64,000 bases of DNA from Candidatus Poribacteria bacterium. GTDB lineage: Bacteria > Poribacteria > WGA-4E > WGA-3G. The notes under the pieces are model-generated. The model made no database searches. It worked only from the letters and a program-made list of their open reading frames with translations, and was not told the origin of the DNA. Location of the stretch: the NCBI GenBank assembly GCA_022822085.1, contig JAJECK010000035.1, positions 1 to 64,000 on the forward strand, written 5' to 3'. Position 1 is the stretch's first letter. Each line of letters starts with the position of its first letter. The position numbers and the translations under genes are program-made. This document shows, piece by piece, positions 14,111-57,321 of this stretch.

Positions 14111-14127
14111 GACATTGGGGCAATAAC

Positions 14128-21546: not shown

Positions 21547-21558
21547 TGGAGTCTTCAG

Positions 21559-22887: not shown

Positions 22888-22899
22888 TGGAGTTTTCAA

Positions 22900-24138: not shown

Positions 24139-24150
24139 CGGAGATACCAA

Positions 24151-25440
24151 ATGCAATCACTATACAGCATTACCACTGCAGCGTTTCGGTTGAAGCTTTT
24201 TACGCTACTTTTTGTAGCAGCACTCAGTGCAACAATACTCACCGGATGTGAGAGACAATTTGTATCGCCGATAGATCCTACTGATCCATCGCAAACTGCC
24301 TCACACTTGGCACAAAAAGCACTGTCGGATCTTGCCAAAACCGCTGCTGACCGTGGATTTGTTGATCTTGCTAACGCTGCAAATGAAGTCGTAAAAGTTC
24401 TCGCAATAGAAACAGGAACGACAACAGGAATGGCATTCTTGAAGCTTTATCGGGAAACATACACCTTACAAAACGCATTTGCTTTAGTAAGCTGCGGGAT
24501 AACATTAGAAGAATTTTATATGGCATCCGGGCGTGCAGCAGAGGCATACATAACAGATCCATACTTAACAGAAGCAGCAGTGGAACCAAGGGACAGGGAA
24601 CAAGTATTGGAAAACCTTGCTCATGAAGCATTGAATGCAGGAACGATATTGCGGCAGTTTCCTGCAGAGAACGCTTTTATTCCCTTTGCCTTCGGTTATA
24701 AGCCCTCCGGCTATCTTCCCTCAGGCAGTGGTGGGACAGTATACTTTTATCCGTGCAACAACGAAATACTCATAAGTTATGATGAAACAATCCTGCCAGT
24801 GATTATAACGCGGGCAGCTGTAGTTGAGTTTCTGACTCTTAAAGGATACGCGATGGTGCAGGAGAAACTACCATCTACCAATTATGAGTTTATAAATTTA
24901 AGTGCGGATGTTAATCCATATTCTATTAGGGAAGAATTACTCTCTATTCCCGGTGTTGCGAGAATAGGTATCTGTGGGGATGACTACATTCCCGGGCCTT
25001 CTATCATAGAAGAACCAACCTTCGATGCTCAACCATTTTTTATTGTCGTAGACCGGGTAAGGGCAAGATATAATGAAGCTTGGTGTCAGGGCAACTTTGA
25101 CGTTATCGACAGCATCTTAATTGAAGAAAGCGGGTTAGATTTCTTTAATTATATTTTTATCCGCAATCTTACAGATATCTATGCAGAAGAAATTCCGGAG
25201 GCTGCAGAACGTATCCAAACAAACGGTTTTTCCCTTCACAGTATAGCAGTTGTGTTTCTTTATATCTATTCTTGGCATTCAGAGAAAAGTCACGAAGATA
25301 TTATTGAACTCTTCCGACAATCCATCAGAGATGGATATGTGGCTATAGAACATGTAAGAGGTGGGATGCGTGTTAAGAATCTATACATCGATCAAATCGC
25401 CCCACCACAACCACCAATCACAATCCGGACAATTCCCTAA
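24151..25440 (+). CDS. Lipoprotein of a tandem paralogous family, copy 4
   Basis: The 429-residue product starts MQSLYSITTAAFR and then carries the signal peptide with LTGC, as in copy 2; the first codons again resemble the start of the downstream ggt gene. It keeps FIPFAFGYK and LDFFNYIFIRNLTDIYAEE but has lost the shared C-terminal end (HYYLTTNYWKQL in the other copies) and ends in a different, proline-rich tail (APPQPPITIRTIP). It is the most diverged copy. Function unknown. Confidence 0.75.
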   Translation: MQSLYSITTAAFRLKLFTLLFVAALSATILTGCERQFVSPIDPTDPSQTASHLAQKALSDLAKTAADRGFVDLANAANEVVKVLAIETGTTTGMAFLKLYRETYTLQNAFALVSCGITLEEFYMASGRAAEAYITDPYLTEAAVEPRDREQVLENLAHEALNAGTILRQFPAENAFIPFAFGYKPSGYLPSGSGGTVYFYPCNNEILISYDETILPVIITRAAVVEFLTLKGYAMVQEKLPSTNYEFINLSADVNPYSIREELLSIPGVARIGICGDDYIPGPSIIEEPTFDAQPFFIVVDRVRARYNEAWCQGNFDVIDSILIEESGLDFFNYIFIRNLTDIYAEEIPEAAERIQTNGFSLHSIAVVFLYIYSWHSEKSHEDIIELFRQSIRDGYVAIEHVRGGMRVKNLYIDQIAPPQPPITIRTIP

Positions 25441-40504: not shown

Positions 40505-41374
40505 CAGCATATCTCATAAATATTTTAATGACATACGTATGCAAGCAGTACAAAACCTAAATAATTTTCAGCATAATATTCCCAACGAACGACTAAACGC
40601 CGAAAATCCTCCAACCAACTGAAAAATCTTTCTACTTTGAAACGACGCTTGGACCGTCGCAAACGCCGACCATCCTGTGTCGCCTGTTTTTTGCGATTCT
40701 TTTTATGAGGGGCTACCATTTCAATACCACGCCCCCTCAAAGACGCATCTAAAGGATCAGAGTCATAGGCTTTGTCCCCAATCAACACAGCGGGGTCTTC
40801 GGAGGTCCAACAGGCATCCAACGCCAGTTCAACCAAGCGCACTTCATGACAGGAAGCACTTATAATCAGAACACTCACAGGCCTACCGCTTTTTTCTGTC
40901 CTAGCTACCAGTTTTGTCCCTTTGCCACACTTCGTTGGACCCACACAAGTACCACCTTTCTTCGCAGGAACGAATTTCGCATCAATACAGCACTCACTCA
41001 TATCTATTTTTTTTCGCTTCTCAAGCATTTCTGTGAGTGCATTTGAACTTTTTCAAGCGTTCCATCCCTTGACCATTGCTGAAAACGACGATGACAAGTT
41101 TGGTAGGATGGATACTTTTCCGGTCCATCCCGCCAAGGTGTGCCTGTTCGCAACACCCAGAGTATCCCATCTAATACTTCTCTATTATCACGCCAAGGTC
41201 TGCCTTGTTTACCTGATGGGAGTTCAGGTAACAGCGGTTCAATGATTTCCCATTTTTTATCGCTGAGTTCCATTCAAATCATCTCCTAACTTTCATATCT
41301 TTTCAAAAGTTTAACAGAGATGATAATTTTTTAAAAGTTTTAATTTCAATTATTACTATTTATGAGATACGCTG
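40505..41374 (-). mobile_element. IS5-family insertion sequence (IS427-like)
   Basis: About 870 bases with terminal inverted repeats CAGCATATCTCATAAAT (40505-40521) and ATTTATGAGATACGCTG (41358-41374), one mismatch apart, each flanked by TA (40503-40504, 41375-41376), as expected for target TA duplications. It holds two overlapping ORFs of transposase on the minus strand. It sits in a TolB-like gene. The MITE at 30124-30247 has the same ends. Confidence 0.85.
40525..41273 (-). CDS. IS5-family transposase made by -1 frameshifting of two ORFs
   Basis: ORF A (41004-41273, 89 aa, from MELSDKKWEIIEPLLPELPSG) has the DUF4096 N-terminal domain and ORF B (40525-41028) has the DDE domain: DAKFVPAKKGG (D1), VLIGDKAYDSD (D2) and ERFFSWLEDFRRLVVRWEYY (E). 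The frames meet at a run of eight A on the minus strand (41014-41007). ORF A ends GAA AAA AAA TAG there; slipping back one base at the run gives ...KK IDMSECCIDAKF, which joins ORF A to ORF B exactly. So a -1 programmed frameshift is predicted. Confidence 0.8.
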
Positions 41375-41924: not shown

Positions 41925-44900
41925 CTACACCTGCTCAACACTCAACGTAGCAGGTTCACCGTTGAGATTCTGATCTACACTAAACGCCTTCTTACTTGCC
42001 GATTCAACCACTTCAGTCGTCAAAGTCTCACTCAAAATATACTCCCGATGTGCTTCAAATGCCTCCGATACAAGCGCAGATGATGTTTTCACACTGAGCT
42101 TAATCCGATCAGACACATTAAAATCCGCATCCTTTCGCATGTTTTGGATTTTATTGACAAGTTCGCGCGCCATCCCTTCAAGCACTAATTCGTGTGTCAG
42201 TTCCGTTGACAATGCGACAAATTTCCTCGCATCCACCACTACAAAGAAACCTTCTCTATTCTGTGTCTGCACGTCGATTTCTGACTGCTCAAGGGTGTAG
42301 GTCTCACCGGATGCATCAATTTCTAAACTCCCATTCGCTTCCAATTCCGATTTCAACTGCATCGCATCCGCAGTAGCGAGTGCTTTAGCGATTGCCTGCA
42401 CACCCTTGCCATACTTCGGTCCCAACACCTTGAAGTTCGGTTTGAGAGTCACCTGTGCAAACGTGTCCAACTCTTCTGTAAATACGATTTCTTTAACATT
42501 CAACTCATCGTGAACGAAGGAGGATAGACGATTGACAGTCTCTTTTTCCGCTTCTGATAGTCCGCCGAGTGTGATTTCAGCAAGTGGTTGACGCGTCTTA
42601 ATACCGGAACGATTCCGAGCAGCATGCCCCATACTGATAACCTCGCGTGTGAAAGCCATATCGTCTTCTAACGTGGCATCTATTAACGCATCATCTGCAT
42701 TCGGGTATTCTGCAAGGTGAACGCTCAGCGGTGCATCGGAGTCAAGCGAACAGACTAAGTTGCGATAGAGCTCATCTGCCAAGAACGGAATAAACGGTGC
42801 AGCAAGTTTCGCAACAGTCACAAGCACCTCATACAACGTGGCATAAGCTGCGTGTTTGTCTTGTCCTGCCTCCGCGCCCCAAAAGCGGCCACGGGAACGA
42901 CGAACATACCAGTTGCTAAGGTCATCCACAAACGCTTCAATAGCTCGTGGTGCATTCGTCAGATGGTAATTCTCCATGTCGTCTCGCACCTTATTGATCA
43001 AGGTCCGCAATCGGGACAAAATCCATCTGTCTATCATCGCACGTTCAGAAACCGGTGGTGCATCTTGCCACGGCGCGCGAGGTTGGAAAACCTCGCCAGC
43101 AATTTCCAAATTGGCATACATCACGAAGAAACTATAGACATTGTGTAGTGTTCCCATGAACTTCTTCAACGCTTCATCAATGCTTTCCGGTTGGAAAGTC
43201 CGTTGTGCCCAAGGCGGAGAGCCAGTGAACATATACCACCGCATCGCATCTGCACCCTGCTCATTCAAAATCGTCCACGGGTCTACTGTGTTACCTCGAC
43301 TTTTGCTCATTTTCTGCCCATCGGAAGCGAGTATCAACTCAAGACAGAGGCAGTTTTTATATGCAGGTTTGTCGTATAGAAGTGTGCCAGTTGCCAACAG
43401 ACTGTAGAACCAACCACGAGTCTGGTCAATTCCTTCCGAGATGAAGTCGACAGGATAGGTACGTTCAAATAACTCCTTGTTTTCAAAAGGATAGTGCCAT
43501 TGTGCCGTGTGTGCACAACCTGAGTCAAACCAACAATCAATCACATCCTGAATGCGATGCATTGTGCCGCTACACTTCTCACAAGTCAGCACAACGTCGT
43601 CAACATAGGGACGGTGGAGTTCAATATCATCAGGCACATCACGACCGAGTTCCTTCAGTTCCGCAATACTACCAACGCAGTGTTGATGTCCACAATCGTC
43701 ACATATCCAAATAGGAAGCGGTGTTCCCCAATAACGTTCCCGACTCAATCCCCAGTCAATGTTGTTTTCCAACCAGTTACCAAACCTGCCATCTTTGATA
43801 TGCTCAGGATACCAGTTGATCTCCTGATTGTGCTGACGCATCTGGTCTCGGATTGCAGTCGTCCGGATAAACCACGATTCACGCGCATAATACAACAACG
43901 GGTTATCACATCGCCAACAGAACGGATATTGGTGTGTGTACTCAGCTGCCTTGAACAACAACCCACGTTCATCTAAGTTTTCTATGATCATCGGGTCGGC
44001 ATCTTTGACATATTCACCTGACCACACATCCTTAACTTCTGGGACAAACTTACCATCCGCACCCACCAACTGCACAAACGGTAGATTGTGTTTTTGACCG
44101 ATATCGTAGTCATCTTGACCAAAAGCAGGTGCGATATGGACTAATCCGCTTCCCTCTGTGGTCGTTACGAAGTCACCAGGGACAATATAATAGGACTTTT
44201 CGTCATGCTCTCCAGCATCAAAAAGCGGTTCATATTCCCAATCGAGTAGGTCGCTGCCCTTATAGTTTTCAACAATCTGTGGAGGTTCATCACCAAATAA
44301 TCCTTGCATGCATTCCTTTGCAAGGATAAGTTTTTTACCATTTTCTTCAACAGCGACATAATCGTCCTCTTCACCGACAGCAACAGCGACGTTTGAAGGC
44401 AACGTCCACGGAGTCGTTGTCCACACAAGCAGATAGGTCCCTTCTCTATTCTTCAGTGGAAATCGTACAAAGATGGACGGGTCAGCTACCTCTTGGTAAC
44501 CGAGTGCAACTTCATGACTTGCCAACGTTGTCCCACACCGATAGCAATACGGCTGCACCTTATGTCCCTGATACAGCAGTTTTTTGTCCCAGGCTTGCCG
44601 CAACACCCACCACACACTCTCAATATAATCATTTGACAACGTAATATACGCTTCATCTAAGTTCACCCAGAATCCGATACGTTCCGTCATCTCACGCCAA
44701 TCCTGCTCATATTGGAAGACGTTTTCCTTGCACTTCTCAATAAAGTTTTGAACACCGTAAGCCTCTAATTCCGCTTTATTTCTGATGTTGAGTTGTTTCT
44801 CCACCTGATACTCAACAGGAAGTCCGTGCGTGTCCCAACCTGCTTTTCTGTGGACATAATGTCCAGTCATCGTCTTATATCGGCACACAGCGTCCTTCAT

Positions 44901-45089
44901 GATGCGTGCAAGGACGTGATGCACACCGGGTGGGGCATTTGCAAACGGCGGTCCTTCAAGGAAAATAAACGGCGGCGCGTCCTTGTACATCTCCATGCTT
45001 TTCTCAAAGATGTCGTTTTCACGCCAGAACGCAAGCGTCTGTTTCTCCTTTTCTGCAAAGGTAAATTGTGGTGATACTTCTTCAAACAT
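41925..45089 (-). CDS. ileS: Isoleucyl-tRNA synthetase, IleRS2-like with GVHH in place of HIGH
   Basis: IleRS charges tRNA-Ile and edits valine. The start is taken at ATG 45089 (GAGGA upstream), giving 1054 residues. Class I elements are FIFLEGPPFANAPPGVHHVL (about 41-60), KAGWDTHGLPVEYQVEK, and DGQKMSKSRGNTVDPW. At the signature position Gly55-Val56-His57-His58 replaces the usual H-x-G-H. In work on mupirocin-resistant IleRS2 the same altered signature (GXHH) was linked to hyper-resistance. Upstream are a promoter, leader ORF and terminator. A palindromic repeat (43077-43096) lies in-frame in the coding sequence, in the linker AGEVFQPRA. Confidence 0.95.
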   Translation of the reverse strand: MFEEVSPQFTFAEKEKQTLAFWRENDIFEKSMEMYKDAPPFIFLEGPPFANAPPGVHHVLARIMKDAVCRYKTMTGHYVHRKAGWDTHGLPVEYQVEKQLNIRNKAELEAYGVQNFIEKCKENVFQYEQDWREMTERIGFWVNLDEAYITLSNDYIESVWWVLRQAWDKKLLYQGHKVQPYCYRCGTTLASHEVALGYQEVADPSIFVRFPLKNREGTYLLVWTTTPWTLPSNVAVAVGEEDDYVAVEENGKKLILAKECMQGLFGDEPPQIVENYKGSDLLDWEYEPLFDAGEHDEKSYYIVPGDFVTTTEGSGLVHIAPAFGQDDYDIGQKHNLPFVQLVGADGKFVPEVKDVWSGEYVKDADPMIIENLDERGLLFKAAEYTHQYPFCWRCDNPLLYYARESWFIRTTAIRDQMRQHNQEINWYPEHIKDGRFGNWLENNIDWGLSRERYWGTPLPIWICDDCGHQHCVGSIAELKELGRDVPDDIELHRPYVDDVVLTCEKCSGTMHRIQDVIDCWFDSGCAHTAQWHYPFENKELFERTYPVDFISEGIDQTRGWFYSLLATGTLLYDKPAYKNCLCLELILASDGQKMSKSRGNTVDPWTILNEQGADAMRWYMFTGSPPWAQRTFQPESIDEALKKFMGTLHNVYSFFVMYANLEIAGEVFQPRAPWQDAPPVSERAMIDRWILSRLRTLINKVRDDMENYHLTNAPRAIEAFVDDLSNWYVRRSRGRFWGAEAGQDKHAAYATLYEVLVTVAKLAAPFIPFLADELYRNLVCSLDSDAPLSVHLAEYPNADDALIDATLEDDMAFTREVISMGHAARNRSGIKTRQPLAEITLGGLSEAEKETVNRLSSFVHDELNVKEIVFTEELDTFAQVTLKPNFKVLGPKYGKGVQAIAKALATADAMQLKSELEANGSLEIDASGETYTLEQSEIDVQTQNREGFFVVVDARKFVALSTELTHELVLEGMARELVNKIQNMRKDADFNVSDRIKLSVKTSSALVSEAFEAHREYILSETLTTEVVESASKKAFSVDQNLNGEPATLSVEQV
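43077..43096. repeat. Palindromic repeat inside the ileS coding region
   Basis: GCGAGGTT and AACCTCGC (8-base stem) flank GGAA. It keeps the frame and codes for part of AGEVFQPRA, a linker before the anticodon-binding domain. The intergenic palindrome at 27191-27212 is a near match, so the repeat seems to have entered the gene in-frame. Confidence 0.6.
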
Positions 45090-45113
45090 GCGGTAGTTCC
45101 TCATATAATGCTT

Positions 45114-45160
45114 AAAAAACAAAACGCCCCACCGAAATCCGTTGTTTCAGTGATGGGCGT
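45114..45160 (-). terminator. Attenuator terminator in the ileS leader
   Basis: On the minus strand ACGCCC and CACTGAAA (45160-45145) pair with TTTCGGTG and GGGCGT (45137-45124), with a 2-base bulge and one G-T wobble, followed by a T-tract (TTTGTTTTTT, 45123-45114). It lies 25 bases before the ileS start. Its 5' arm also can pair with 45193-45200, so it is a 3:4 hairpin of attenuation type. Confidence 0.8.
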
Positions 45161-45594: not shown

Positions 45595-46611
45595 TTATTT
45601 CGTATATGTTCTTTTCAGTTCTGCCCAACGCACTGATTGTTTCCCTTCGGGTGTGATAGGCAATTCACCACCATTCCAATGAGCCCTTGATCCTTCCGCC
45701 AAGAACGTAATCTCATCTGTAGCGAGATCATACTTATAAATCTTCATCACAATAGGAAGGTCGTTATCTCTATCATATACATGCGCACTGAAAAGCACAG
45801 ACCGCTGTCCATCCATCCATTCAACAGAAATTGGAAACCAATTCTCAGGTGTTTTCAATGTCCGTGTTGTGTCGTCATCTATGTTGTGGATGATAATACG
45901 GAATGTTCCTGTTGACCGAATTTGAATTCCCTTACCACCATCATCGTCCCAAAGTATGTTGACGATGATATCCATCTCGATATATAGCATCTGTTTGCCA
46001 TCAGGTGACCATCGCGGATAAAAACGATGCCTCCCACCTCTTTCAGGATCGGGGTGTGTCCATTGACGCATGTTGTCTCCATTTGCATCCACGAACCAAA
46101 GGTTTTTCTCAATAATATCATGATCGTCATTGATAAAGACAATTTGCTTTCCATCCGGCGACCAGTCGCAGTAATGTATATGATTTCTGAGTATCAGATT
46201 TGTTTCACGAGTATCAATATCTATTGTATAGAGACCTATCAGATAGTTGTGGTAGAGAAGTTTTCTACCATCTGGAGAATACCGCAAGTCTGTTGCTGCT
46301 CCAAACTCGTCCGTAATCTGCCGGGCATTCGATCCATTTGCATTCATGATGAAAATATCGGGTCGCGTGCTGATGTCATTCGGTGTTGTGTCCCGTATAA
46401 ACGCTATCTGTCTTCCGTTAGGCGACCATCTCGGTCTCCATTCGGAATATGGATTGTCGTTGATAGGTGTGATGTTTCTGCCATTGTCATCCATGACAAA
46501 GATTTGTGCTTTTCCGTTTTCCCACGTGCTGAATATGATTTTGGCGTTGGCTGTTGCTGCACATAGCAGTAGTATGAGACTGATAGTTAACGTTGTTCGT
46601 AGTGTTTGCAT
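45595..46611 (-). CDS. Secreted TolB-like beta-propeller protein
   Basis: The 338-residue product has a signal peptide (MQTLRTTLTISLILLLCAATANA) and four or more PD40 blades: FVMDDNGRNITPIND, PRWSPNGRQIAFI, DIFIMNANGSNARQIT, DLRYSPDGRKLLYH, CDWSPDGKQIVFI and PRWSPDGKQMLYI. It ends PITPEGKQSVRWAELKRTYTK, the tail shared with three other secreted proteins. It is a distant paralogue of 39006. Its role is not known; binding of proteins or polymers in the periplasm is likely. It stands alone, with palindrome-rich DNA on both sides. Confidence 0.8.
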   Translation of the reverse strand: MQTLRTTLTISLILLLCAATANAKIIFSTWENGKAQIFVMDDNGRNITPINDNPYSEWRPRWSPNGRQIAFIRDTTPNDISTRPDIFIMNANGSNARQITDEFGAATDLRYSPDGRKLLYHNYLIGLYTIDIDTRETNLILRNHIHYCDWSPDGKQIVFINDDHDIIEKNLWFVDANGDNMRQWTHPDPERGGRHRFYPRWSPDGKQMLYIEMDIIVNILWDDDGGKGIQIRSTGTFRIIIHNIDDDTTRTLKTPENWFPISVEWMDGQRSVLFSAHVYDRDNDLPIVMKIYKYDLATDEITFLAEGSRAHWNGGELPITPEGKQSVRWAELKRTYTK

Positions 46612-47065
46612 GTGTCTTCTCCTTCGGTTTGTTCTGCTGGTTTATGAGCAATTTACGTGCCAATCGCAGTCTGCTGAATCGTGCTTTGTGCTGCACGATT
46701 ATGTGCATCGGTTGTTGCTGTTGCACGTATTGGTGCAGGGATTTCTGAATCGCAGAAGACGCGGAAAAGACATATCTTAATCCAATATCACAATCAAAGA
46801 ACACAACAATAATCTCGGATTTTGCGGAGATTCTATCGTTGCAGTGGTTTCCACCGCGTCAACAATCTTTTTGGTATAAACCCTGACAAATTTGGTGTAT
46901 AATAGTTATATAGTGGAACCTAAAAATATGTGCACACTCCTGGTAGATGCGGTTTCCTAACCGCATCTATGAGACTGAATGAATACCAGTTCGGTTAGGA
47001 AACCGAACCTACCGTAGTGTGTAAATAATTATGGTTTTTACTATCAATTAAAAAGGAACATCGTT
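46612..47065. repeat. Gene-free stretch with palindromes before the protease array
   Basis: No gene is supported in 454 bases. Two palindromes of the GGTT/AACC family are present: AGATGCGGTT-TCCT-AACCGCATCT (46945-46968) and GTTCGGTT-AGGA-AACCGAAC (46989-47008), in opposite orientation. TATAAT at about 46901 lacks a well-placed -35 box. A dispersed motif (CTGAATCGCAGAAGACGCGG) near 46746 also occurs near 45490. Confidence 0.6.
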
Positions 47066-48547
47066 ATGCAAGAAAATAAAGATATCACTTTGCGACAATT
47101 CGCTGAAAATGCCCTTAAGAATTCTGTTGTCCGTTTGAATGTGAAAAGAGAAATACCACTTCTTTCATTACGACCTCAATATGATTTATCTAATATTTAT
47201 TCAGGGAGTGGAAGTGGCTTTTTTATAGATAAGCACGTGATTGTTACGAACTGCCATGTCATATTAGGAGCTACGTCCGTCTCGGGTTATCTCTCAAAGA
47301 TGGAAAACACATTCCAGATTGAAAGTGTTAAGGCTTATGACTTGGACAATGATTTAATTGTTCTCAAGGTGACAAATGCTGGAACACCACTTAAACTTGG
47401 TGATAGTAACATGATCGATAAGAAAGATTCTGTTTGTGCAGCAAGTTATGCCAAAGGTGTACCCAATATCGTACACGGTACCATTGATGGAATTGACCGA
47501 AATGATAATCAGATTCGAATGAAAATCCGGACTGCTGCCGGCAGCAGCGGATGTGCAATCATTAACAGAATAGGTGAAGTAATTGGGATTGATACGGCTG
47601 GAAATGACGCATATTCTTACGCTATTCCGTCAAACACATTAAAATCGTTATTAAGAAAAACTGGAAAAGAAATGTCTATCACAGTGTGGCACAAACTTCC
47701 ACTCATACGCGCTTTTGCTGCAGCTGAAATAGGTGATGATTTGCTTGAAGACGAAGAATATAAAGAAGCAATTGCATATTTTGATACAGCAATTGAACTC
47801 AAACCTGATAATGCGAAGGCATACAAAGGTCGGGCAGGCGCAAGGATGGAACTTACAAACTTTAGCAGGGGAATTGAAGATTATCTCAACTACCGTAAAC
47901 TCAATCCTAAATCAATCCGTAGGTCCGGTTTTTGGTCCTACTCAATCTGGAAGTTGATTGGGGTTTGGACTGTTGGGGGACATCTTCTCATCAAGTTATT
48001 AAGAACACTATTTAGTGAAAGTAGTTGGTTCAGATTACGAGGGATATTTAAATCTGCATTTGGGCAATCTGAAGCGAAGGATGGGAATCATGCGAAAGCA
48101 AAATTGCTATTGCAGGAATCAATAAGTGACTTTACTGAGGCAATATCTCTAAATCCCGATGAGGCAGGAATATATAACAGCCGCGGGTGGGCAAAGTATC
48201 TACTTGGACAAGTTGAAACTAAACAAGATAATGAAGCAGAAGCAAAGAGACTTTTTCATGAGGCAATATCGGATAGTGAGAATGCACTACAGTTCGACAT
48301 GAAGAATCCAAAACATCGGTCTGCATACTATCATACACGTGCTGTTGCAAAGGCGGAGTTAGGGGCACATAACGATGCTATCAATGACTTAGATTTATCT
48401 ATAAAGCTAAATTCAGAGAAGGCACGTTACTTTTTCGACCGTGGACTTTCAAAAGCATCACTTGAACAGTGCAAGGACGCAGAAATAGATTTTACGAAAG
48501 CGAGACAATTGCAGCCGGATATTGAGAAAAAGTATAAAGACGAATAG
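47066..48547 (+). CDS. Trypsin-like serine protease with TPR repeats, array copy 1
   Basis: First of five tandem paralogues. The N-terminal part (about 25-205) is a trypsin-like/HtrA-type protease with GSGFFIDKHVIVTNCHV (His64), AYDLDNDLIVLKV (Asp96) and AAGSSGCAIINRIGEVIGID (Ser161), so a full triad is predicted. The C-terminal part has TPRs (YFDTAIELKPDNAKAYKGRA; DLDLSIKLNSEKARYFFDRG). Between them is an amphipathic segment (WKLIGVWTVGGHLLIKLLRTLF). There is no signal peptide, so it is cytoplasmic. Target and trigger are unknown; closely similar to copy 4. Confidence 0.8.
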   Translation: MQENKDITLRQFAENALKNSVVRLNVKREIPLLSLRPQYDLSNIYSGSGSGFFIDKHVIVTNCHVILGATSVSGYLSKMENTFQIESVKAYDLDNDLIVLKVTNAGTPLKLGDSNMIDKKDSVCAASYAKGVPNIVHGTIDGIDRNDNQIRMKIRTAAGSSGCAIINRIGEVIGIDTAGNDAYSYAIPSNTLKSLLRKTGKEMSITVWHKLPLIRAFAAAEIGDDLLEDEEYKEAIAYFDTAIELKPDNAKAYKGRAGARMELTNFSRGIEDYLNYRKLNPKSIRRSGFWSYSIWKLIGVWTVGGHLLIKLLRTLFSESSWFRLRGIFKSAFGQSEAKDGNHAKAKLLLQESISDFTEAISLNPDEAGIYNSRGWAKYLLGQVETKQDNEAEAKRLFHEAISDSENALQFDMKNPKHRSAYYHTRAVAKAELGAHNDAINDLDLSIKLNSEKARYFFDRGLSKASLEQCKDAEIDFTKARQLQPDIEKKYKDE

Positions 48548-48567
48548 ACAATAAAGAGGAAACACCT

Positions 48568-50550
48568 ATGGAAAAACAAAACGTTGAACATATCTTAGGC
48601 ACCGTTGTGTATTTAAAATTCGAGCCTGATAGTAAAAAATACACCGGTAGAGGTAGTGGGTTTTTCATTGAACCTGACAAAATTGTTACAAACATCCATG
48701 TTCTCTCTGACGGTACAATTGTCAATGTGAAGTGTCAAAAGACAGGAACAACATATACCGTTGAAGGTGTTATCACGTCCGATGACATAAACGATCTTGC
48801 GGTCCTGAAGATCGCTGAAGCAGCGACACCATTCCCTCTTGGGGACAGCCGCAAAGTTCGCAAAGGGCACACCGTCTCTCTCGTATCTTTTCGAGAGGAA
48901 GATGGAAATCAAGTAGATGGTACTGTTGATATCATCCGAAATAGTGGGAAACACCATTGGATAGGATTCAATATCCCTAACGGAAGAGGGTATAGTGGCA
49001 GTCCCGTGCTGAATGCTAAAGGTGAGGTCGTCTCTGTTCTCCAGGCTTCAGAAGAACAATCTCATGAAGATAGACCCACCAATTTCAGAGCTATATCCTC
49101 AAGTCTTCTCGGCACACTTTTGGAAAATGCTAAAAGAGTGGAACCGCTTGATGTCTGGCAAAAACGAGATAGGATACGTGCCTATGAAAAATCATATCAG
49201 GGTAGTCTCAGCAGTCAGCATAAGGATATTAAAGAGGCAATAGCATTTTATGATGATGCAATCAGACTCAATCCGGATCTGGCTGACACCTACCACGGTA
49301 GAGCAGCAGCGATGAGGACGGTAGCAAGACCAGATGAAATGGTCAGCAATTCACTCACAGCACTCCGACTCAATAGAGAGCAATTTAATATGCTCCGTAT
49401 TGGCATATTCCTTTCGTGGAAGTGGAACGTTAGCAAACTTGCAATCAAAAATCTTTTTAATAGATGTGTAAAGAAAATATTTGGTGAAGATGGTTGGTCC
49501 GAAATGCAATTTGAAGTGAAATTCCTTGTTGCCAATAAGAGAATTACAAAGGGATATACTTCTAATGCTCTGCAAGTGTATCAATTAGTTGTTACTGATT
49601 TGACTGAAGTGCTCAACGATAAACCGAGTAAATCAAAACAGGAAACTTTGAATAAAGCACGCAAGTTGTATCAACAGGGAATAAACAATCTAACTGAAAT
49701 CATCAACAGCGATCCAAATAGTGCCGAATCGTATTATTACAGAGGACTTGCAGGAAATATCTTCGGTGAATTAGAAGATCAGCAACGTAGTCCAGATATA
49801 GCACAAAAACTATATCAGGGAGCAATAGATGACTTCACTCAAGCTATTGATTATAAATTACGTGGCTTGCGTGTGCATGATCTCCGTGGACAGACAAAGT
49901 CTCTGATGGCAAAACTTGAAACAAAACAAGACAACACTGAAACTGCCCAGAAACTATACCAAGAGATCGTATCCGACAGTGACAACGCACTCGGATTGCA
50001 GGAGAAATGTAAGGTTTGTCGGTCAGCTATCCATTTCACACGCGGTGCTGCAGAAGCTGCCCTTGAGAACCATGACGCCGCTATTGAAGATTACAATAAC
50101 GCTTTAGAACTGAACCCCAAACATGTCCAAGCATACATCAATCGTGGACATGCGAAAAATGATCGTGGTGATACAAATGGTGCAATAGAGGACTTTAGTA
50201 ATGCCATCCAACTGAAGCCTGAAGAAGGCACAGCCTATTTTAGTAGGGGAGGTATAAAGTCAAAAATTGAGGATTATGAAGGGGCAATAGACGATTACAA
50301 TTTCGCCATAAAACATAACCCTGAACCTGCTAAACTTTATTATATCTATTATATTCGGGGAAATGCTAAGTTAAAACTTGATGATTTTGCAGGTGCTATT
50401 GACGATTATGATAATGCTATCCGACTGCATCCTAAATATGCTAATGCATACAACAATCGCGGTAAAGCAAAACAAGCACTCGGACAGCACGAAGATGCAG
50501 AAGCAGATTTCACAAAAGCAAAGGAATTAGACCCAGATATTGAAAATTAA
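48568..50550 (+). CDS. Trypsin-like serine protease with TPR repeats, array copy 2
   Basis: The largest of the five at 660 residues. Protease part (about 10-190): GSGFFIEPDKIVTNIHV, ITSDDINDLAVLKI and NGRGYSGSPVLNAKGEVV, so His, Asp and Ser are kept. TPR units begin near 215; a hydrophobic insert (IGIFLSWKWNVSKLAIKNLFNRC) interrupts them, and the C-terminal 170 residues have at least four units (AIEDYNNALELNPKHVQAYINRG; AIDDYDNAIRLHPKYANAYNNRG). It begins 20 bases after copy 1, with GAGGAAACACCT before the ATG. Confidence 0.8.
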   Translation: MEKQNVEHILGTVVYLKFEPDSKKYTGRGSGFFIEPDKIVTNIHVLSDGTIVNVKCQKTGTTYTVEGVITSDDINDLAVLKIAEAATPFPLGDSRKVRKGHTVSLVSFREEDGNQVDGTVDIIRNSGKHHWIGFNIPNGRGYSGSPVLNAKGEVVSVLQASEEQSHEDRPTNFRAISSSLLGTLLENAKRVEPLDVWQKRDRIRAYEKSYQGSLSSQHKDIKEAIAFYDDAIRLNPDLADTYHGRAAAMRTVARPDEMVSNSLTALRLNREQFNMLRIGIFLSWKWNVSKLAIKNLFNRCVKKIFGEDGWSEMQFEVKFLVANKRITKGYTSNALQVYQLVVTDLTEVLNDKPSKSKQETLNKARKLYQQGINNLTEIINSDPNSAESYYYRGLAGNIFGELEDQQRSPDIAQKLYQGAIDDFTQAIDYKLRGLRVHDLRGQTKSLMAKLETKQDNTETAQKLYQEIVSDSDNALGLQEKCKVCRSAIHFTRGAAEAALENHDAAIEDYNNALELNPKHVQAYINRGHAKNDRGDTNGAIEDFSNAIQLKPEEGTAYFSRGGIKSKIEDYEGAIDDYNFAIKHNPEPAKLYYIYYIRGNAKLKLDDFAGAIDDYDNAIRLHPKYANAYNNRGKAKQALGQHEDAEADFTKAKELDPDIEN

Positions 50551-50589
50551 ACAAATACAAGCTCATTCAAACATATAGGGCCCATCACT

Positions 50590-52128
50590 ATGGAACAAGA
50601 AAAAGACAATACACCTCAACATATTGATGAAAATAATAGAAACGCTTTGGTTTATATTGAAATAATGCCAAATAATATATTAGTTCTCCCTTGGCGTATA
50701 AAGAAGTTTTTTACGAGAAGTCAAAGTGTTACAAACGTAAGTATGCACAATACTTTTACGAGCATGCATAAGGATGCGAAAAAAGATGCACAGAAAATTG
50801 GTGTCGCAGGCACCGGTTTTTTTGTTGCGCCAGACCTATTGGTGACCAATATTCATGTTGTCGCAAATGCGGAAACTATCGCCGCAAAACATCTGACATT
50901 CAAGAAAACACCTATGTACCACCCAGACCATAAAGATATCCCTTATGGATACAAAAGGGAAGTTAGCAAAAAACCTGTCTTATATTCTATCAATGGTGTT
51001 GCTGCGTTCGATGCACAGAATGACTTGGTTGTGCTAAAAGTTAATGAGAAATGTGCTACCCATCTCCCTCTTAGCAATAGTGAAAATGTCAACAAAGAAG
51101 ACAAAGTGTTTACCCTAACTTATGCAAATGCTGAGTACAAATGCATTGAAGGCACTTTATCTGGTAGGAACGAGAGGAGATGGTTTGAGATTGTAACGCA
51201 GTATACACCAGGAAATAGTGGGAGTCCTGTGCTCAACACGAATGGAGAAGTCATCGGCATAGCATGTCTGATGGCTCAGACACAGCATGAGAGTACCCTC
51301 AATCCTCTTATATTGGGAAGTGCTATTCCATCTAATTATCTTGAAAATCTCCTTGAAGAAGCGGAAGAAATAGAGTCTTTTGCCACATGGCAAAAACGTC
51401 CAACTATCCATGCCTATGCTTTGTTGAGTCAGGCACAAAGGAAACAGGCACAAGGGAAATACAAATCCGTAATTGCAAAATATAACCGAATTCTCAAACT
51501 CAACCCCCATATTACTGTTGGTTATAGTAACCGAGGTGCTGCAAAAACCGCACTTGGCAACTATATCAAAGCGATTGAAGATTATGATGAAGTTATTCAA
51601 CAATATCCGGATTATTCGAATGCATACTACAATCGTGGGAGAGCAAAAGGTCTACTTGGTGAGAAATATGTTAAACAAGGAAAACTTGCGGAAGCACGAC
51701 AATACTATCTAATGGCGATTGACGACTATGCCGAAGTAATTAATCAGGATCCAAAACGCAGTATAGCTTACAATAATCGTGGGTGGACGAAGTATCTTCT
51801 TGGGCAAGTTGAAACGAAAGAAGGAAACCAGACAGAAGCACAAAGACTATATCAAGAAGCAATAACCGATGCTGATGAGGCATTAAGGTTCCAACCTGAG
51901 GGAGACTTATATCGGTCATCATTCTATCACACTCGCGGTGCTGCAAAAGCTGCCCTTGACAATCATCACGAAGCGATTGAGGACTTTGATGAATCCATTA
52001 ACCTAAATCCCGACAAAGCGTTGTTATATCAGGACCGTGGACTATCCAAAAAAGCAATCGGGCTGCGAACAGAAGCGGATGCAGACTTCGCCAAAGCAAA
52101 AGAATTAGACCCGAAGATTGACAAATAA
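50590..52128 (+). CDS. Trypsin-like serine protease with TPR repeats, array copy 3
   Basis: 512 residues. Protease part (about 65-255): AGTGFFVAPDLLVTNIHV, AFDAQNDLVVLKV and YTPGNSGSPVLNTNGEVIGI, so the catalytic motifs are intact. It has an N-terminal extension (about 20-60) not seen in copy 1, and lacks the hydrophobic insert. TPRs follow (YNRILKLNPHITVGYSNRG; YDEVIQQYPDYSNAYYNRG; DFDESINLNPDKALLYQDRG). Starts 39 bases behind copy 2. Confidence 0.8.
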   Translation: MEQEKDNTPQHIDENNRNALVYIEIMPNNILVLPWRIKKFFTRSQSVTNVSMHNTFTSMHKDAKKDAQKIGVAGTGFFVAPDLLVTNIHVVANAETIAAKHLTFKKTPMYHPDHKDIPYGYKREVSKKPVLYSINGVAAFDAQNDLVVLKVNEKCATHLPLSNSENVNKEDKVFTLTYANAEYKCIEGTLSGRNERRWFEIVTQYTPGNSGSPVLNTNGEVIGIACLMAQTQHESTLNPLILGSAIPSNYLENLLEEAEEIESFATWQKRPTIHAYALLSQAQRKQAQGKYKSVIAKYNRILKLNPHITVGYSNRGAAKTALGNYIKAIEDYDEVIQQYPDYSNAYYNRGRAKGLLGEKYVKQGKLAEARQYYLMAIDDYAEVINQDPKRSIAYNNRGWTKYLLGQVETKEGNQTEAQRLYQEAITDADEALRFQPEGDLYRSSFYHTRGAAKAALDNHHEAIEDFDESINLNPDKALLYQDRGLSKKAIGLRTEADADFAKAKELDPKIDK

Positions 52129-52139
52129 TTTTACTCCTA

Positions 52140-53678
52140 ATGGCACAAGCAAGAGATAAAACACTACAACACATTGCGGAAAAAGCTCTATCTGAATCAG
52201 TCGTTCGCTTGGAACTGTGGTGCCCCGATACATATCACGAATATGTCATCTCTTTTGATGTGGATAATCCTACACAATATCCTGGTGTAGAATCAGTTGA
52301 CCAACCATCCAATAAGATTAAAACTATAATAAAGCAACTCATGAAACATGCAAGTGGTTTTTTCGTTGATAAGGACACGATTGTCACCAATTGTCATGTT
52401 GCACAAGGGGTAGACTCCATCGAAGCGGAACTTGTAGATAAGCAAGAAAAATTTGATATAGAAAGTGTTGAAGCTTATGACGTTGAAAATGACCTGATTC
52501 TCCTAAAAGTCAACGGTGAAGGCGTTCCACTAACTATTGGTGATAGCACAGAAATTATGAGTGAAGACGTTATCTGTGCAGCTGGTTATCCTAACGGAAA
52601 TGCAGAAATCATTCACGGTGCAATTGATGGTATCAGTTCAAGCAATCAACGTATCCGTATGCGAATTGGCACTACTGGTGGCAGTAGTGGGTGTCCTATT
52701 TTCAATAGTAACGGTGATACAATAGGCGTTGATGCGTCCGGTAATGATGCATATAGTTTTGCTATTCCAGCTAACGCCTTAAAAGCATTAATCAACAAGG
52801 ATAGAGAATCACTCCCATTAAAGGAATGGCAGAAATTACCCAATATACGTGCATTTACCGAAAAGAAGGAAGGGGATAAATTGCAGAAAGAAGGTGACTA
52901 CAAAAAGGCAATCGCGCATTATGATACTGCAATTCAACTCAAACCAGATATGGTAACAGCGTACGAGGGAAGAGCAGATGCCAAGATGGAACTTGGGGCA
53001 CTCGGCGGATCAATGGAAGATATTCTCACGATAGCGCGTCTCAAGCCAGTTCAGTTTCGTTTTTCCAATTTCAAAAACTATTTTTCATGGAAATTTAGCT
53101 GGATTAAGTGTATATGTATACATCTTTTCATCAAGCTTTTAGCTTTCATCTTTGGCAAAAGTGGTTGGTTTAGATTTAAAGCACATGTAAAGATTGGAAG
53201 AGCAAGAACTGAAATGAAAAAAGGAAACAAAACTAAAGCAAAACTGATTTATCAAGAGGCTATATATGACTTTACTGTGGCTATTCATCTAAAACCCAAG
53301 GTTGCTGGAATCTATAATTGTCGTGGATGGACGAAATATCTATTAGGACAACATGAAACTGAGGAAGATGACGAAGAGAAAGCACAGCAATTGTATCAAG
53401 AAGCAATTTCTGACGCAGACAAGGCTTTACAGTTACATTCTAAAAATTCCAAATCTAAGGCTGCGTACTATCACACCCGCGGCACTGCAAAAGCTGCACT
53501 CAATGATCATCACGCAGCGATTACAGATTTCAATGAATGCATCCGTATAAGACCTAAGAAAGCACTATACTATGACGACCGTGGACTATCAAAGAAAGCA
53601 ATTGGACAGCAGGAAGATGCCGAAGCAGATTTTGCGAAGGTAGAGGAAATAGATCCAGATTTTGAAAGGACACCTTAA
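52140..53678 (+). CDS. Trypsin-like serine protease with TPR repeats, array copy 4
   Basis: 512 residues, closest to copy 1 (both start with a 'TLxxxAExAL' helix and 'SVVRL'). Protease part: ASGFFVDKDTIVTNCHV, AYDVENDLILLKV and TGGSSGCPIFNSNGDTIGVD, complete triad. A TPR unit precedes the hydrophobic insert (FSWKFSWIKCICIHLFIKLLAFIFG), and further TPRs follow it (IYQEAIYDFTVAIHLKPK; DFNECIRIRPKKALYYDDRG). It begins 11 bases after copy 3. Confidence 0.8.
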   Translation: MAQARDKTLQHIAEKALSESVVRLELWCPDTYHEYVISFDVDNPTQYPGVESVDQPSNKIKTIIKQLMKHASGFFVDKDTIVTNCHVAQGVDSIEAELVDKQEKFDIESVEAYDVENDLILLKVNGEGVPLTIGDSTEIMSEDVICAAGYPNGNAEIIHGAIDGISSSNQRIRMRIGTTGGSSGCPIFNSNGDTIGVDASGNDAYSFAIPANALKALINKDRESLPLKEWQKLPNIRAFTEKKEGDKLQKEGDYKKAIAHYDTAIQLKPDMVTAYEGRADAKMELGALGGSMEDILTIARLKPVQFRFSNFKNYFSWKFSWIKCICIHLFIKLLAFIFGKSGWFRFKAHVKIGRARTEMKKGNKTKAKLIYQEAIYDFTVAIHLKPKVAGIYNCRGWTKYLLGQHETEEDDEEKAQQLYQEAISDADKALQLHSKNSKSKAAYYHTRGTAKAALNDHHAAITDFNECIRIRPKKALYYDDRGLSKKAIGQQEDAEADFAKVEEIDPDFERTP

Positions 53679-53714
53679 ACATTAACGTATAGGAAATAGA
53701 CAGGGAACTCTGTG

Positions 53715-54926
53715 ATGGAACATGAAAGAGATTACCAATTTCAACATATTGCTGCAAGCTGCAAAGAATCTACTGTTTGCTTGAAAACGACATTTATCGG
53801 GTTGACAGCTCAAACCGGAAGTGCCTTTTTTGTAGAACCAGACAAAATAGTAACGAATATTCATGTTATTGGAGGAGTACCTATTTTTAATGTCAAAGTG
53901 ATCACCGCAAAGCAGTTTGAAAACAAAAGAATTCCTATACACCACCGTATTTCTGATACAGTAAAAAATGGCATTCTTCGGCTGTTCCAACATTTCTTTA
54001 CACACTTAGGATCGGAGAAAAATGAAAAGCCGAATCAATCTCAAAATCGAGAAGAAAAGATAGTATACGCGATTGAAGGTGTTACAGCGTTTGATGATAA
54101 AAACGATCTTGTTCTCCTCAAGATTACAAAAGCAGGTGTACCACTTCCGATTGGAAACTGCAATGATATTCAAAGTGGAGAACAAGTTTATATTGTCGGT
54201 TATGTTGACACACAATATAAATGTATAAAAGGAAATATTGTTAATGGGAACAATAGTGACAAACAACTTATGATAAAAGTGAAGAAACCTGAGAAGGACG
54301 TTGCCGGACACAGCGGCGGACCTGTGTTAAACAGCAAAGGTGAAGTTATTGGAGTTGTTGCCTCTGCTTTAGGATCAGGATCAAATAAGAGGGATGCAAG
54401 TGGTCATATCTTCGTTCATGCCCTTCCTGTAAATGTACTCCAAGAAATGATGGAGAACTCAGGGCAAGTTGAGCCTTTGGAGAAATGGCGTAAACATCCA
54501 CAGATAAGTGCATACAACAAAGCAGATTTGGGGAACATGAAATTAGCAGCCGGAAAATACAAACAGGCGATAGAATACTATACTGCTGCACTTCAACGGA
54601 ATCCCAACTTTGCGTTTGTCTATTTTAAACGGGGTTATGCAAAGGACGAACTTGGTGATGTTAAAGGTGCTATAGAAGATTATGACAATGCTATAAGACT
54701 AAACCCTGACAATGCTGGTATATATAATAATCGTGGATATTCAAAGAACAAGTTGGGTGCCTATGAAAGTGCGATAGAAGATTATGACAATGCTATTCGG
54801 CTTAACCCTGAAGATGTGGATTTTTACAATAATCGTGGACGTGCAAAAAAAGCACTTGGGAAGCATAAAGATGCGGAAGAAGATTTCGATAAAGCAAAGG
54901 AATTAAATTCAAAATCTAAAAAGTAA
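53715..54926 (+). CDS. Trypsin-like serine protease with TPR repeats, array copy 5
   Basis: The start is taken at ATG 53715 (a GTG precedes it). The 403-residue protein has AFFVEPDKIVTNIHV, AFDDKNDLVLLKI and VAGHSGGPVLNSKGEVIGVV, so the triad is intact with the standard GHSGGP. The protease (about 20-250) is followed by three TPRs (YYTAALQRNPNFAFVYFKRG; DYDNAIRLNPDNAGIYNNRG; DYDNAIRLNPEDVDFYNNRG), each 34 residues. The shortest, and without the hydrophobic insert. A MITE of family A lies right after the stop. Confidence 0.8.
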   Translation: MEHERDYQFQHIAASCKESTVCLKTTFIGLTAQTGSAFFVEPDKIVTNIHVIGGVPIFNVKVITAKQFENKRIPIHHRISDTVKNGILRLFQHFFTHLGSEKNEKPNQSQNREEKIVYAIEGVTAFDDKNDLVLLKITKAGVPLPIGNCNDIQSGEQVYIVGYVDTQYKCIKGNIVNGNNSDKQLMIKVKKPEKDVAGHSGGPVLNSKGEVIGVVASALGSGSNKRDASGHIFVHALPVNVLQEMMENSGQVEPLEKWRKHPQISAYNKADLGNMKLAAGKYKQAIEYYTAALQRNPNFAFVYFKRGYAKDELGDVKGAIEDYDNAIRLNPDNAGIYNNRGYSKNKLGAYESAIEDYDNAIRLNPEDVDFYNNRGRAKKALGKHKDAEEDFDKAKELNSKSKK

Positions 54927-54931
54927 CGTAG

Positions 54932-55055
54932 TGCTTCGTCAACATATTATTGTTCGCGATTCGGAGATCGCTCCTACCGATGGACTGCTTAGGGTAGGAG
55001 GGAACTCCGATTCCCGACTACTTTCAAGACCCATCAATTAACGCTTGACGAAGCA
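54932..55055. repeat. MITE family A, copy 2 (124 bp)
   Basis: Begins TGCTTCGTCAA and ends TTGACGAAGCA, with GTAG on both sides (54928-54931 and 55056-55059). Same length as the copy at 19002. Inner stem is CTCCTACC/GGTAGGAG here, against TCAGACC/GGTCCGA in copy 1, while flanking parts are nearly identical. It lies behind the stop of the last protease gene. Confidence 0.85.
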
Positions 55056-55077: not shown

Positions 55078-57321
55078 TCAATACCGTTTCACCAATTCCA
55101 ATCCCCAAAACCTTGGTTCATTCACATAACCGGTCAGGTTATTGAAGTCAATACCACCAGTTAAAGAAGTATCGTCGAGGATGTTACGGCCTATAAGTGC
55201 AAATTCCGTTACAACATTCGGTATCTTACAAGCGAGTCTAACGCCACCTTCCAAAAGCCAGTCATCGCTAAATTCCACAGAGTCGTAAAGAAAGAAATGC
55301 ACACGACTCCGATATGCCCAATCCGTAGATGCTACGAGGCGGAAACCTGATGGCAGCTCAAGAATATAACGCAAGTTTATGTCAGCAATCCAAGTAGGTG
55401 CTTGTGGCAAAGTGTTGCCATCAATATAATATGTGCCTTCAACAGAAGCATGTGGATCCAATACTGTGCAGGGTGCCCCGCAACCTGCCACAGTCAAATT
55501 CGGATCATCAATGCGTGTATAGTTGTAACTGATACCCGCTGATACCTCCAACGGTTTGATCGGTGCAAATATCAATTCTGCCTCAACACCACGTCCAATA
55601 GTGTTCTCAGCATTCACTAACCGGTTGAAATTCGCCTCTCCACCCACAGCAGTTAGTTGTTGGTCTTGCATAGAGTAGTTAAACGCTGTAAGATTTAGAT
55701 GTATTCGTTGATCCAACAATCGCATCTTCGTGCCAACTTCAAAGGATAGAATAGTCTCTGTATCCGCAACCGTGACTTCATTTCCAAATAACAAACGTCC
55801 CTGAATACTGGGGGCACGGAACCCTCGCGCACCACGCCAATATGTCTGTATACTCGGGGAAATCTGATACCGTAGACTCAGATCACCACTCCATACTGTA
55901 TCCTGCGGATTTTTGTGGATAGGTCCGATCGGTTTAGCTCCCTTTTCTGCCTCAACTGCGGGTACTTCCTCTCGCCATGCAGTATAATCCTTTGCATCAT
56001 CAGATAAACGCACCCCGACACCTAATTCCAAATCTTCACTTAATTGCAAGGTCGTGGAGGCATACGCTGCCAGTGCTGTAGCGGTCTGCTCTTGACGCAC
56101 ATATCCATCTTGAGTGCCGCCAGCCAAAGTATTGTAATTGAAATCCTCCATTTTCACAAACTCATTAAAATAATACAAACCAAATTGATAGTCGATACGA
56201 CTGTCACCTGTAGTCATCAAACGAACTTCTTGACTGAACTGATTTAGCAAAGGAATGCCTGACGCTGTTTCGGAAGGAAATGGAATCACACCAGGACCAC
56301 TTGTTGGCAGGAAAGCAGCTCCGTACCCGCCATCAATATCTCCACGCGTGAAGAGTGTCAGCCTCTCCAAACCTGTCAGCGATACTAATTGGTGGTTTCC
56401 AATATCGTAACTAACCTGAAATGCTAACCCACCAGAAAATAGATTTTGTTCATTTTCGCCATCTTGTGCGACGTTGGCACGTTCAAAATCTTGAACTAAC
56501 CCACCTTCATCGGGGGCAATTATATTTGCACGAAATATGCGGGCAGTACCATCAAGATCGCGGACATGAAGTTTTAGCCATGTTTCCAACTTCGGCATCG
56601 GTGTCCACAATAATTGCAGCCGTGCAGCAAGATCATGATGTCCACCTAAAGTATTGTCATCATTCGTATGCGTGTTGTCTACCCAATCGCCACGCCATAG
56701 ACTTAGGATTGAAAGCCGTGCTGAAAGGACAGATGGAATAAACGATTCGGAAATCGCTCCTTCATAATTGATGGTTCTGAACCTACCGAAACTTAACTGA
56801 CCATAATGTTCCTCTGTATGTGTAGGTCGCGCTGATTCAAACTTCACTGCACCAGCAGGCGTATTCCGACCAAATAGTGTACCTTGTGGTCCCCGTAACA
56901 CTTCAATTCGTTCCAAGTCAAAGGCAGGATACCCTTTCAACAAAGCATTTTCCAACACGACACCATCATAGAGAACTGAAACCGGTTGTGATGCGTTGAG
57001 GTCAAAGTCAGTGTTACCAAGTCCACGGATATAAAATCGTGGAAACACGCGACCAAAAGACGATTCCATCTGTAGACTCGGCGTGCGATTTGACAGAAAA
57101 CGTAAATCCATGCCTGATGATCGTAAATCTTGGGATTTGCCACCGCGGATCGTTGATACGGAGAGCGGTACTTCAAAAGACAACTGCTCGCGTTTACGGG
57201 CGGTAACCACTACCTCTTCTAATGTATGTACGTCTTCTGTTTCCTCATCGGCAACGGATATAAAAGTTGTAGATAGTAAAGCCACAAAAATTAATACAAA
57301 TATCTGCTTACAAATTTCCAT
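55078..57321 (-). CDS. TonB-dependent receptor
   Basis: Outer membrane receptor using TonB energy for import of iron complexes, vitamins or sugars. The 747-residue protein has a signal peptide (MEICKQIFVLIFVALLSTTFISVA), then EEVVVTARKREQ near the mature start (a TonB-box-like region), a plug domain with LSVSTIRGG, YIRGLGNTDFDLN and IEVLRGPQGTLFGRNTPAGAVKF, and a beta barrel to the terminal aromatic FWGLELVKRY. Ligand unknown. No TonB/ExbBD gene is nearby. Its presence implies an outer membrane. Confidence 0.92.
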   Translation of the reverse strand: MEICKQIFVLIFVALLSTTFISVADEETEDVHTLEEVVVTARKREQLSFEVPLSVSTIRGGKSQDLRSSGMDLRFLSNRTPSLQMESSFGRVFPRFYIRGLGNTDFDLNASQPVSVLYDGVVLENALLKGYPAFDLERIEVLRGPQGTLFGRNTPAGAVKFESARPTHTEEHYGQLSFGRFRTINYEGAISESFIPSVLSARLSILSLWRGDWVDNTHTNDDNTLGGHHDLAARLQLLWTPMPKLETWLKLHVRDLDGTARIFRANIIAPDEGGLVQDFERANVAQDGENEQNLFSGGLAFQVSYDIGNHQLVSLTGLERLTLFTRGDIDGGYGAAFLPTSGPGVIPFPSETASGIPLLNQFSQEVRLMTTGDSRIDYQFGLYYFNEFVKMEDFNYNTLAGGTQDGYVRQEQTATALAAYASTTLQLSEDLELGVGVRLSDDAKDYTAWREEVPAVEAEKGAKPIGPIHKNPQDTVWSGDLSLRYQISPSIQTYWRGARGFRAPSIQGRLLFGNEVTVADTETILSFEVGTKMRLLDQRIHLNLTAFNYSMQDQQLTAVGGEANFNRLVNAENTIGRGVEAELIFAPIKPLEVSAGISYNYTRIDDPNLTVAGCGAPCTVLDPHASVEGTYYIDGNTLPQAPTWIADINLRYILELPSGFRLVASTDWAYRSRVHFFLYDSVEFSDDWLLEGGVRLACKIPNVVTEFALIGRNILDDTSLTGGIDFNNLTGYVNEPRFWGLELVKRY

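What the first reader, a model, noticed from the sequence alone, without database searches (positions are those of the whole stretch)
47066..54926. Five tandem genes for trypsin-like protease fused to TPR
All five keep His, Asp and Ser motifs and lack signal peptides, and the TPR part varies in number. Copies 1, 2 and 4 have an amphipathic or hydrophobic insert between TPR blocks, copies 3 and 5 lack it. Subtypes differ in the Ser motif (GSSG, GYSGSP, GNSGSP, GHSGGP). Tandem variation of the recognition part with a constant catalytic part is typical of systems that respond to diverse targets, such as defence or proteolytic signalling.
Basis: inference. Interest (0 to 1): 0.68.

Follow-up and report, generated by a model that had tools for sequence, protein, structure and literature searches.

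The report
Tandem HtrA-like proteases with TPR arms
A sponge-type Poribacteria genome carries five neighbouring genes for active protein-cutting enzymes fused to protein-binding arms; relatives keep a variable set of two to five at the same chromosomal spot, an old and slowly reshuffled gene family more likely to be a set of specialised internal proteases than a rapidly diversifying defence system.

Summary
In detail: 47066-54926 encodes five intact cytoplasmic Trypsin_2+TPR proteins in one compact operon. The heads have the HtrA (S1C) fold, with TPRs where HtrA has PDZ. The interpretation only partly holds. In 16 genomes of the same Candidatus Poribacteria genus the array sits between ileS and a TonB receptor (where the contig allows), with 2-5 members. 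Trees show four old subfamilies (A-D) predating these species, not recent amplification. Heads are no more conserved than arms (paralogues 27-48% against 37-49%; dN/dS about 0.17-0.40 in both), so "constant catalytic, varying recognition part" is wrong. Two clear arm exchanges between heads exist, plus apparent broken copies: slow birth-and-death with rare modular exchange. The "insert" of copies 1, 2 and 4 belongs to subfamilies A and D; in copy 4 it is modelled as a 53-residue helix in the TPR solenoid. No defence partner, phage relative or mobile context was found. Best reading: a lineage-expanded set of soluble or membrane-associated HtrA-like proteases whose arms recruit different clients. 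The plain architecture is already annotated in cyanobacteria. The locus, subfamilies and arm swaps appear undescribed in the papers searched.

The parts
47066..48547 (+). Copy 1 (subfamily D): cytoplasmic HtrA-like protease head (to about 47686) plus TPR arm; Ser motif GSSGCA
47918..48073 (+). Hydrophobic segment inside the TPR arm of copy 1 (approximate limits)
   Evidence: position by alignment to the copy 4 model
48568..50550 (+). Copy 2 (subfamily A): protease head (to about 49155) plus the longest TPR arm of the five; 95 aa longer than its closest orthologue
49387..49545 (+). Hydrophobic/aromatic segment inside the TPR arm of copy 2 (approximate limits)
50590..52128 (+). Copy 3 (subfamily B): protease head (to about 51387) with a hydrophobic insert before the first core strands, plus TPR arm without the long helix
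52140..53678 (+). Copy 4 (subfamily D): protease head (to about 52826; HtrA fold, Z 26 to HtrA1) plus TPR arm of six repeat-like units
53061..53219 (+). Copy 4 insert, modelled as one 53-residue helix (aa 308-360) with a hydrophobic core
53712..54926 (+). Copy 5 (subfamily C): protease head (to about 54485) with a poorly modelled insert between His and Asp (aa 71-115), plus four canonical TPRs
41925..45122 (-). Isoleucyl-tRNA synthetase (ileS), conserved left flank of the array
   Evidence: 86-93% identical in the genus
45595..46611 (-). PD40 beta-propeller protein between ileS and the array; absent at this place in G010 (not a conserved partner)
55078..57321 (-). TonB-dependent receptor, conserved right flank of the array
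   Evidence: 71-87% identical

Best explanation
An old, vertically kept multigene locus of cytoplasmic HtrA-like (S1C-fold) serine proteases in which a C-terminal TPR arm takes the place of the PDZ domains of canonical HtrA. Shown: intact triads, HtrA fold, no export signal, an operon-like layout, four subfamilies older than the sampled species, 2-5 members per genome, purifying selection on head and arm alike, apparent broken copies and rare arm exchange. Inferred: each TPR arm recruits a different client or adaptor protein to its head. In subfamilies A and D the long hydrophobic helix either holds the enzyme at the inner face of the membrane or mediates self-assembly. The set as a whole performs ATP-independent, client-selective proteolysis (processing or quality control) inside the cell, with individual specificities gained and lost by lineage.
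For: Pfam Trypsin_2+TPR in all five. Triad invariant in 37 members. AF2 of copy 4 (pLDDT 89.6) matches HtrA1/DegP/DegS/Deg1 protease domains at Z 23-26, and of copy 5 at Z about 23. No signal peptide and no room for a longer start, in contrast to most dispersed paralogues, which carry signal peptides or lipoboxes. Conserved ileS-[array]-TonB place. Head tree resolves A-D as four supported groups; window copies group with orthologues, not with each other. dN/dS 0.17-0.40 in heads and 0.16-0.28 in arms where dS can be estimated. Arm swaps: G013 C-head with B arm, G014 A-head with C arm.
Against: No client, partner or expression data; function is inferred from architecture. Genome-wide there are 27 Trypsin_2 matches (26 over the cut-off), so the array need not act as one unit. 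Heads evolve much faster than ileS (75-79% against 92.5% to G010), faster than is usual for core quality control. Trimerisation, a defining HtrA property, could not be tested. No coordinates were available to inspect how the arm sits relative to the active site.
Confidence: 0.55

Rival explanations
1. An antiviral or self-surveillance repertoire: each TPR arm detects an intruder or damage signal and the head cleaves and activates a toxic effector elsewhere in the genome, as the trypsin-like proteases of Hachiman and AVAST systems (and the caspase of Canu systems) do.
For: Lineage-specific gain and loss, apparent broken copies and arm swaps; faster evolution than flanking ileS; trypsin-like proteases activate pro-nucleases in antiphage systems (PMC12799240) and are effectors of conflict systems (PMC7159879); PADLOC trypsin-containing models match the heads at about 50 bits.
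Against: PADLOC matches cover only the generic trypsin part. No nuclease, gasdermin-like, VMAP, MoxR/vWA or EAD gene was recognised beside the array, whose flanks are ileS, PD40, TonB receptor and Uma2. Not on a mobile element but at one conserved chromosomal site. No phage relative of the copy 5 head. Purifying selection in arms. The window's actual defence genes lie about 30 kb away.
Confidence: 0.2
2. Host-interaction proteins of a sponge symbiont: TPR-bearing eukaryotic-like proteins delivered to or acting on the sponge, with the protease as an effector.
For: Candidatus Poribacteria genomes (sponge association from general knowledge); TPR proteins are commonly counted among eukaryotic-like proteins of sponge symbionts (papers listed, not read in detail); dispersed paralogues carry signal peptides.
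Against: Array members lack any export signal, and no secretion genes lie beside them. TPRs here are ordinary bacterial TPRs. The same architecture is annotated in cyanobacteria without animal hosts.
Confidence: 0.1
3. Largely neutral copy-number variation of a generic housekeeping protease at a duplication-prone locus, with no division of labour between copies.
For: Birth-and-death pattern, truncated and split copies in G006, G007, G008, G009, G017.
Against: Four subfamilies kept as distinct lineages across species, each mostly with its own arm type and characteristic inserts, all with intact triads and dN/dS well below 1. Splits may be draft-assembly errors.
Confidence: 0.15

Closest known systems
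HtrA/Deg family (S1C; DegP, DegQ, DegS, HtrA1, HtrA2, plant Deg1)
   Same: Protease fold and active-site order; Z 23-26 over 170-200 residues including the N-terminal helix and strand
   Different: No PDZ domain matched; a TPR arm instead; no signal peptide; inserts in protease loops and in the arm
'Tetratricopeptide repeat-containing serine protease family protein' of cyanobacteria (Nostoc, Acaryochloris)
   Same: Trypsin-like domain followed by TPRs; 28-34% identity over head and arm
   Different: Single genes on plasmids in the places inspected, near integrases or toxin-antitoxin genes, not a conserved chromosomal array
Dispersed Trypsin_2-TPR paralogues of the same genome (C1, C5, C22, C92, C101, C104, C150)
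   Same: Same head and arm families
   Different: Most have signal peptides or lipoboxes, C92 and C150 do not; some carry two protease domains in one ORF
Nuclease-protease pairs of Hachiman, AVAST and Lamassu (PMC12799240)
   Same: Intracellular trypsin-like protease fused to another module
   Different: No fusion to HamA, Avs or LmuA and no recognised adjacent nuclease

Membership tests
HtrA/Deg (S1C) | Chymotrypsin-fold protease domain of HtrA type | tested here: met
   Profile matches to HtrA1, HtrA2, DegP, DegQ; structure matches Z 23-26
HtrA/Deg (S1C) | His-Asp-Ser triad | tested here: met
   Invariant in 37 members
HtrA/Deg (S1C) | C-terminal PDZ domain(s) | tested here: not met
   Pfam finds TPRs and no PDZ in all five
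HtrA/Deg (S1C) | Export to the cell envelope, usual for bacterial members | tested here: not met
   No hydrophobic N-terminus and no room for a longer start
HtrA/Deg (S1C) | Trimer as the basic unit | not testable with these tools
   Only single chains were modelled
Defence nuclease-protease pairs (Hachiman, AVAST, Lamassu) | Protease fused to HamA, Avs or LmuA | tested here: not met
   Protease is fused to TPRs only; PADLOC LmuA match covers the trypsin part only
Defence nuclease-protease pairs (Hachiman, AVAST, Lamassu) | Adjacent MBL-fold pro-nuclease gene | tested here: not met
   Flanking genes are ileS, PD40, TonB receptor, Uma2
VMAP/iSTAND ternary conflict systems | MoxR ATPase, vWA, VMAP or EAD components in the same operon | tested here: not met
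   Operon holds only the five proteases; no such domains in the scanned flanks
Gasdermin-activating protease operons | Gasdermin gene beside the protease | tested here: inconclusive
   No candidate among annotated flanking genes; no gasdermin profile was run and small ORFs were not checked exhaustively

The most novel reading that the evidence does not exclude
A modular intracellular proteolytic surveillance repertoire: one chromosomal site keeps several HtrA-type heads and TPR arms and recombines them, so that new head-arm pairings create new protease specificities inside the cell, used against phages or host-derived proteins.
Probability: 0.13. Interest if true: 0.75.

Novelty: new variant of a known kind. 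Interest (0 to 1): 0.42.

Why it matters
HtrA proteases are usually envelope enzymes gated by PDZ domains. A family of cytoplasmic HtrA-fold enzymes gated or aimed by TPR arms, kept as a variable set at one locus for the age of a genus, would be a natural experiment in how protease specificity is built from interchangeable modules. The swapped pairs (G013, G014) make that testable by comparing the same head with different arms. It also corrects a tempting reading: tandem variation by itself is not evidence of defence.

Tried and rejected
Recent tandem amplification: rejected, window copies do not group together. Constant catalytic, variable recognition part: rejected by domain-wise identity and dN/dS. 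Strong gene conversion of arm ends within genomes: amino-acid test negative (748 of 1000 permutations as high), third-position test weakly positive (18 of 1000), so at most weak. Transmembrane reading of the insert: not adopted, because crossing the membrane would put two halves of one TPR solenoid on opposite sides; hydrophobicity is borderline (kd19 about 0.4-1.9). Defence families: PADLOC matches are generic trypsin. Phage relatives of the copy 5 head: none. Literature on Poribacteria TPR proteases and on HtrA-TPR tandem arrays: no paper describing this family found. Genome-contig scan: its only pattern lay in the last TPR, so it says little about other phyla. Promoter and terminator scans were at chance level. 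G011 and G012 could not be assessed because ileS lies at the contig start.

Full report
What is there. The window lies in a 5.6 Mb draft genome (contig C36). Five ORFs at 47066-54926 follow each other on the + strand with gaps of 11-39 nt. Each has a Pfam Trypsin_2 domain followed by TPRs. The triad is intact in all five and invariant in 37 aligned relatives. The N-termini are not hydrophobic, and only 4-16 in-frame codons precede each start before a stop, so hidden signal peptides are excluded.

Fold. The AlphaFold2 model of copy 4 is confident (mean pLDDT 89.6, pTM 0.76). Its first 225 residues match HtrA-type proteases: HtrA1 3tjn Z 26.0, rmsd 2.6 over 187 residues; DegP, DegQ, DegS and plant Deg1 follow closely. 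The copy 5 model (pLDDT 79.4, pTM 0.74) gives Z about 23 to the same proteases for residues 1-254 and about 23 to consensus TPR and O-GlcNAc transferase TPRs for 262-402. Sequence profiles agree. So these are HtrA-fold enzymes with a TPR arm where HtrA has PDZ domains, and no PDZ match was found. Copy 5 has four TPRs and copy 4 six repeat-like units. The segment is found in subfamilies A and D and absent from the arms of B and C. B and C carry their own inserts in the protease half.

The locus in relatives. In the same genus the array sits between ileS and a TonB-dependent receptor. Reading along the array: G000 D A B D C; G010 D A B D; G006 A' D A C(truncated) B; G007 A(split) B C(split) plus an exported one; G005 A' A' C; G017 D(split) C C'; G014 D A A C plus an exported one; G013 D A C (ileS on another contig); G003 D A; G009 D(split) A; G002 D D; G001 D C; G015 D A; G016 D D; G008 D(truncated) plus an exported one; G004 C C' at a contig end. 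That is 16 genomes, with D in 13, A in 10, C in 9 and B in 4. The site is conserved, the membership is not. Splits and truncations may partly be draft-assembly errors.

History. A tree of heads resolves A, B, C and D each as one supported group, and each window copy groups with its orthologue in other species rather than with its neighbours. The subfamilies are therefore older than the sampled species. The tree of arms largely repeats the head tree, with supported exceptions: the C-head of G013 carries a B-type arm, an A-head of G014 carries a C-type arm, and arms of some D members of G001 and G003 group with D4-type arms of G002 and G015. A test for homogenisation of the last 75 residues within genomes was negative for amino acids and weakly positive for third codon positions (18 of 1000 permutations).

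Rates. Between orthologues the head is about as divergent as the arm: copy 1 75% against 83%, copy 2 77 against 76, copy 3 79 against 83, copy 4 78 against 73, all to G010. Among the five paralogues heads are 27-48% identical and arms 37-49%. dN/dS is 0.17-0.40 for heads and 0.16-0.28 for arms where dS can be estimated. The clear differences between orthologous arms are in repeat number: copy 2 is 95 aa longer than in G010, and copy 5 is 68 aa shorter than in G014. ileS is 92.5% and the TonB receptor 87% identical to G010, so the proteases evolve faster than their neighbours but under purifying selection. This contradicts a constant catalytic part beside a fast-varying recognition part.

The wider family. 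The own genome has 27 Trypsin_2 matches, 26 of them over the cut-off. Many more are fused to TPRs, most with signal peptides or lipoboxes, and some have two protease domains in one ORF. Genus members have 6-27 Trypsin_2 matches, and matches to the copy 3 head number 3-23 in the genus against 0-9 in other genera of the order. So this is a lineage expansion. The plain architecture is known: cyanobacterial plasmids carry genes annotated as TPR-containing serine proteases, 28-34% identical.

Function. No partner suggests a pathway. The flanks are ileS, a PD40 propeller protein (absent at this place in G010), the TonB receptor and an Uma2-like protein. PADLOC matches are limited to the generic trypsin part of RT-protease and LmuA models. 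No phage record encodes a relative of the copy 5 head. Known intracellular trypsin-like defence proteases come with a pro-nuclease or with MoxR/vWA/EAD components (PMC12799240; PMC7159879), and none is seen here. I therefore favour client-selective, ATP-independent intracellular proteolysis aimed by TPR arms (0.55), leaving defence at 0.2. Client binding by the arms and membrane association of the A/D helix are inference, not shown.

Verdict. Observation confirmed; interpretation partly supported. The result is a new variant of a known kind of protease family, with an interesting but slow modular evolution, and no present evidence for immunity.

Noticed in passing
window 6892-17208: Defence island: type I restriction-modification (MTase 6892-8502, specificity 8905-10596, REase 14128-17208) enclosing a bSEFIR gene (10580-11554) and a HEC-01-like pair (12274-14110), by PADLOC; about 30 kb from the protease array.
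   Followed up: partly
window 20323-25440: Four tandem ORFs of 407-442 aa with lipoprotein-like N-termini and similar sequences just after them (for example NTQFVQRALSDLA, NTRYAAQKALS); the first has no Pfam match.
   Followed up: no
window 46960-47030 and 54950-55030: Inverted-repeat (REP-like) sequences flank the array on both sides (for example GATGCGGTTTCCTAACCGCATC and GGTTCGGTTTCCTAACCGAACT), seen in the sequence printed and; they could seed recombination.
   Followed up: no
G003 contig C34, G008 C43, G012 C70: A pair of high-scoring Trypsin_2 (HtrA-like) genes lies a few kb from ileS on the side away from the array, so the array may descend from HtrA duplication at this locus.
   Followed up: partly
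L075:7575-9557: In G017 a B-type trypsin head with TPRs is fused behind an FGE-sulfatase domain, at a second conserved site beside acetolactate-synthase-like and phosphofructokinase-like genes; the same site in G000 (L055) and G010 (L151) holds unfused relatives.
   Followed up: partly
L088:4644-12447 (G026, another family of the order): Four close-paralogue Trypsin_2-TPR genes in tandem also lie next to ileS, but on its 3' side; two have signal-peptide-like N-termini and two do not.
   Followed up: partly
L090:3479-3904: A PIN-domain (toxin-like) gene sits inside the array of G013.
   Followed up: no
L049:3851-6367, L144, L145, L147: Lipoprotein-type ORFs with two Trypsin_2 domains and two TPR blocks in one chain, at another conserved place in several genomes.
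   Followed up: no
window 40525-41028: DDE transposase remnant near the 3' side of ileS.
   Followed up: no
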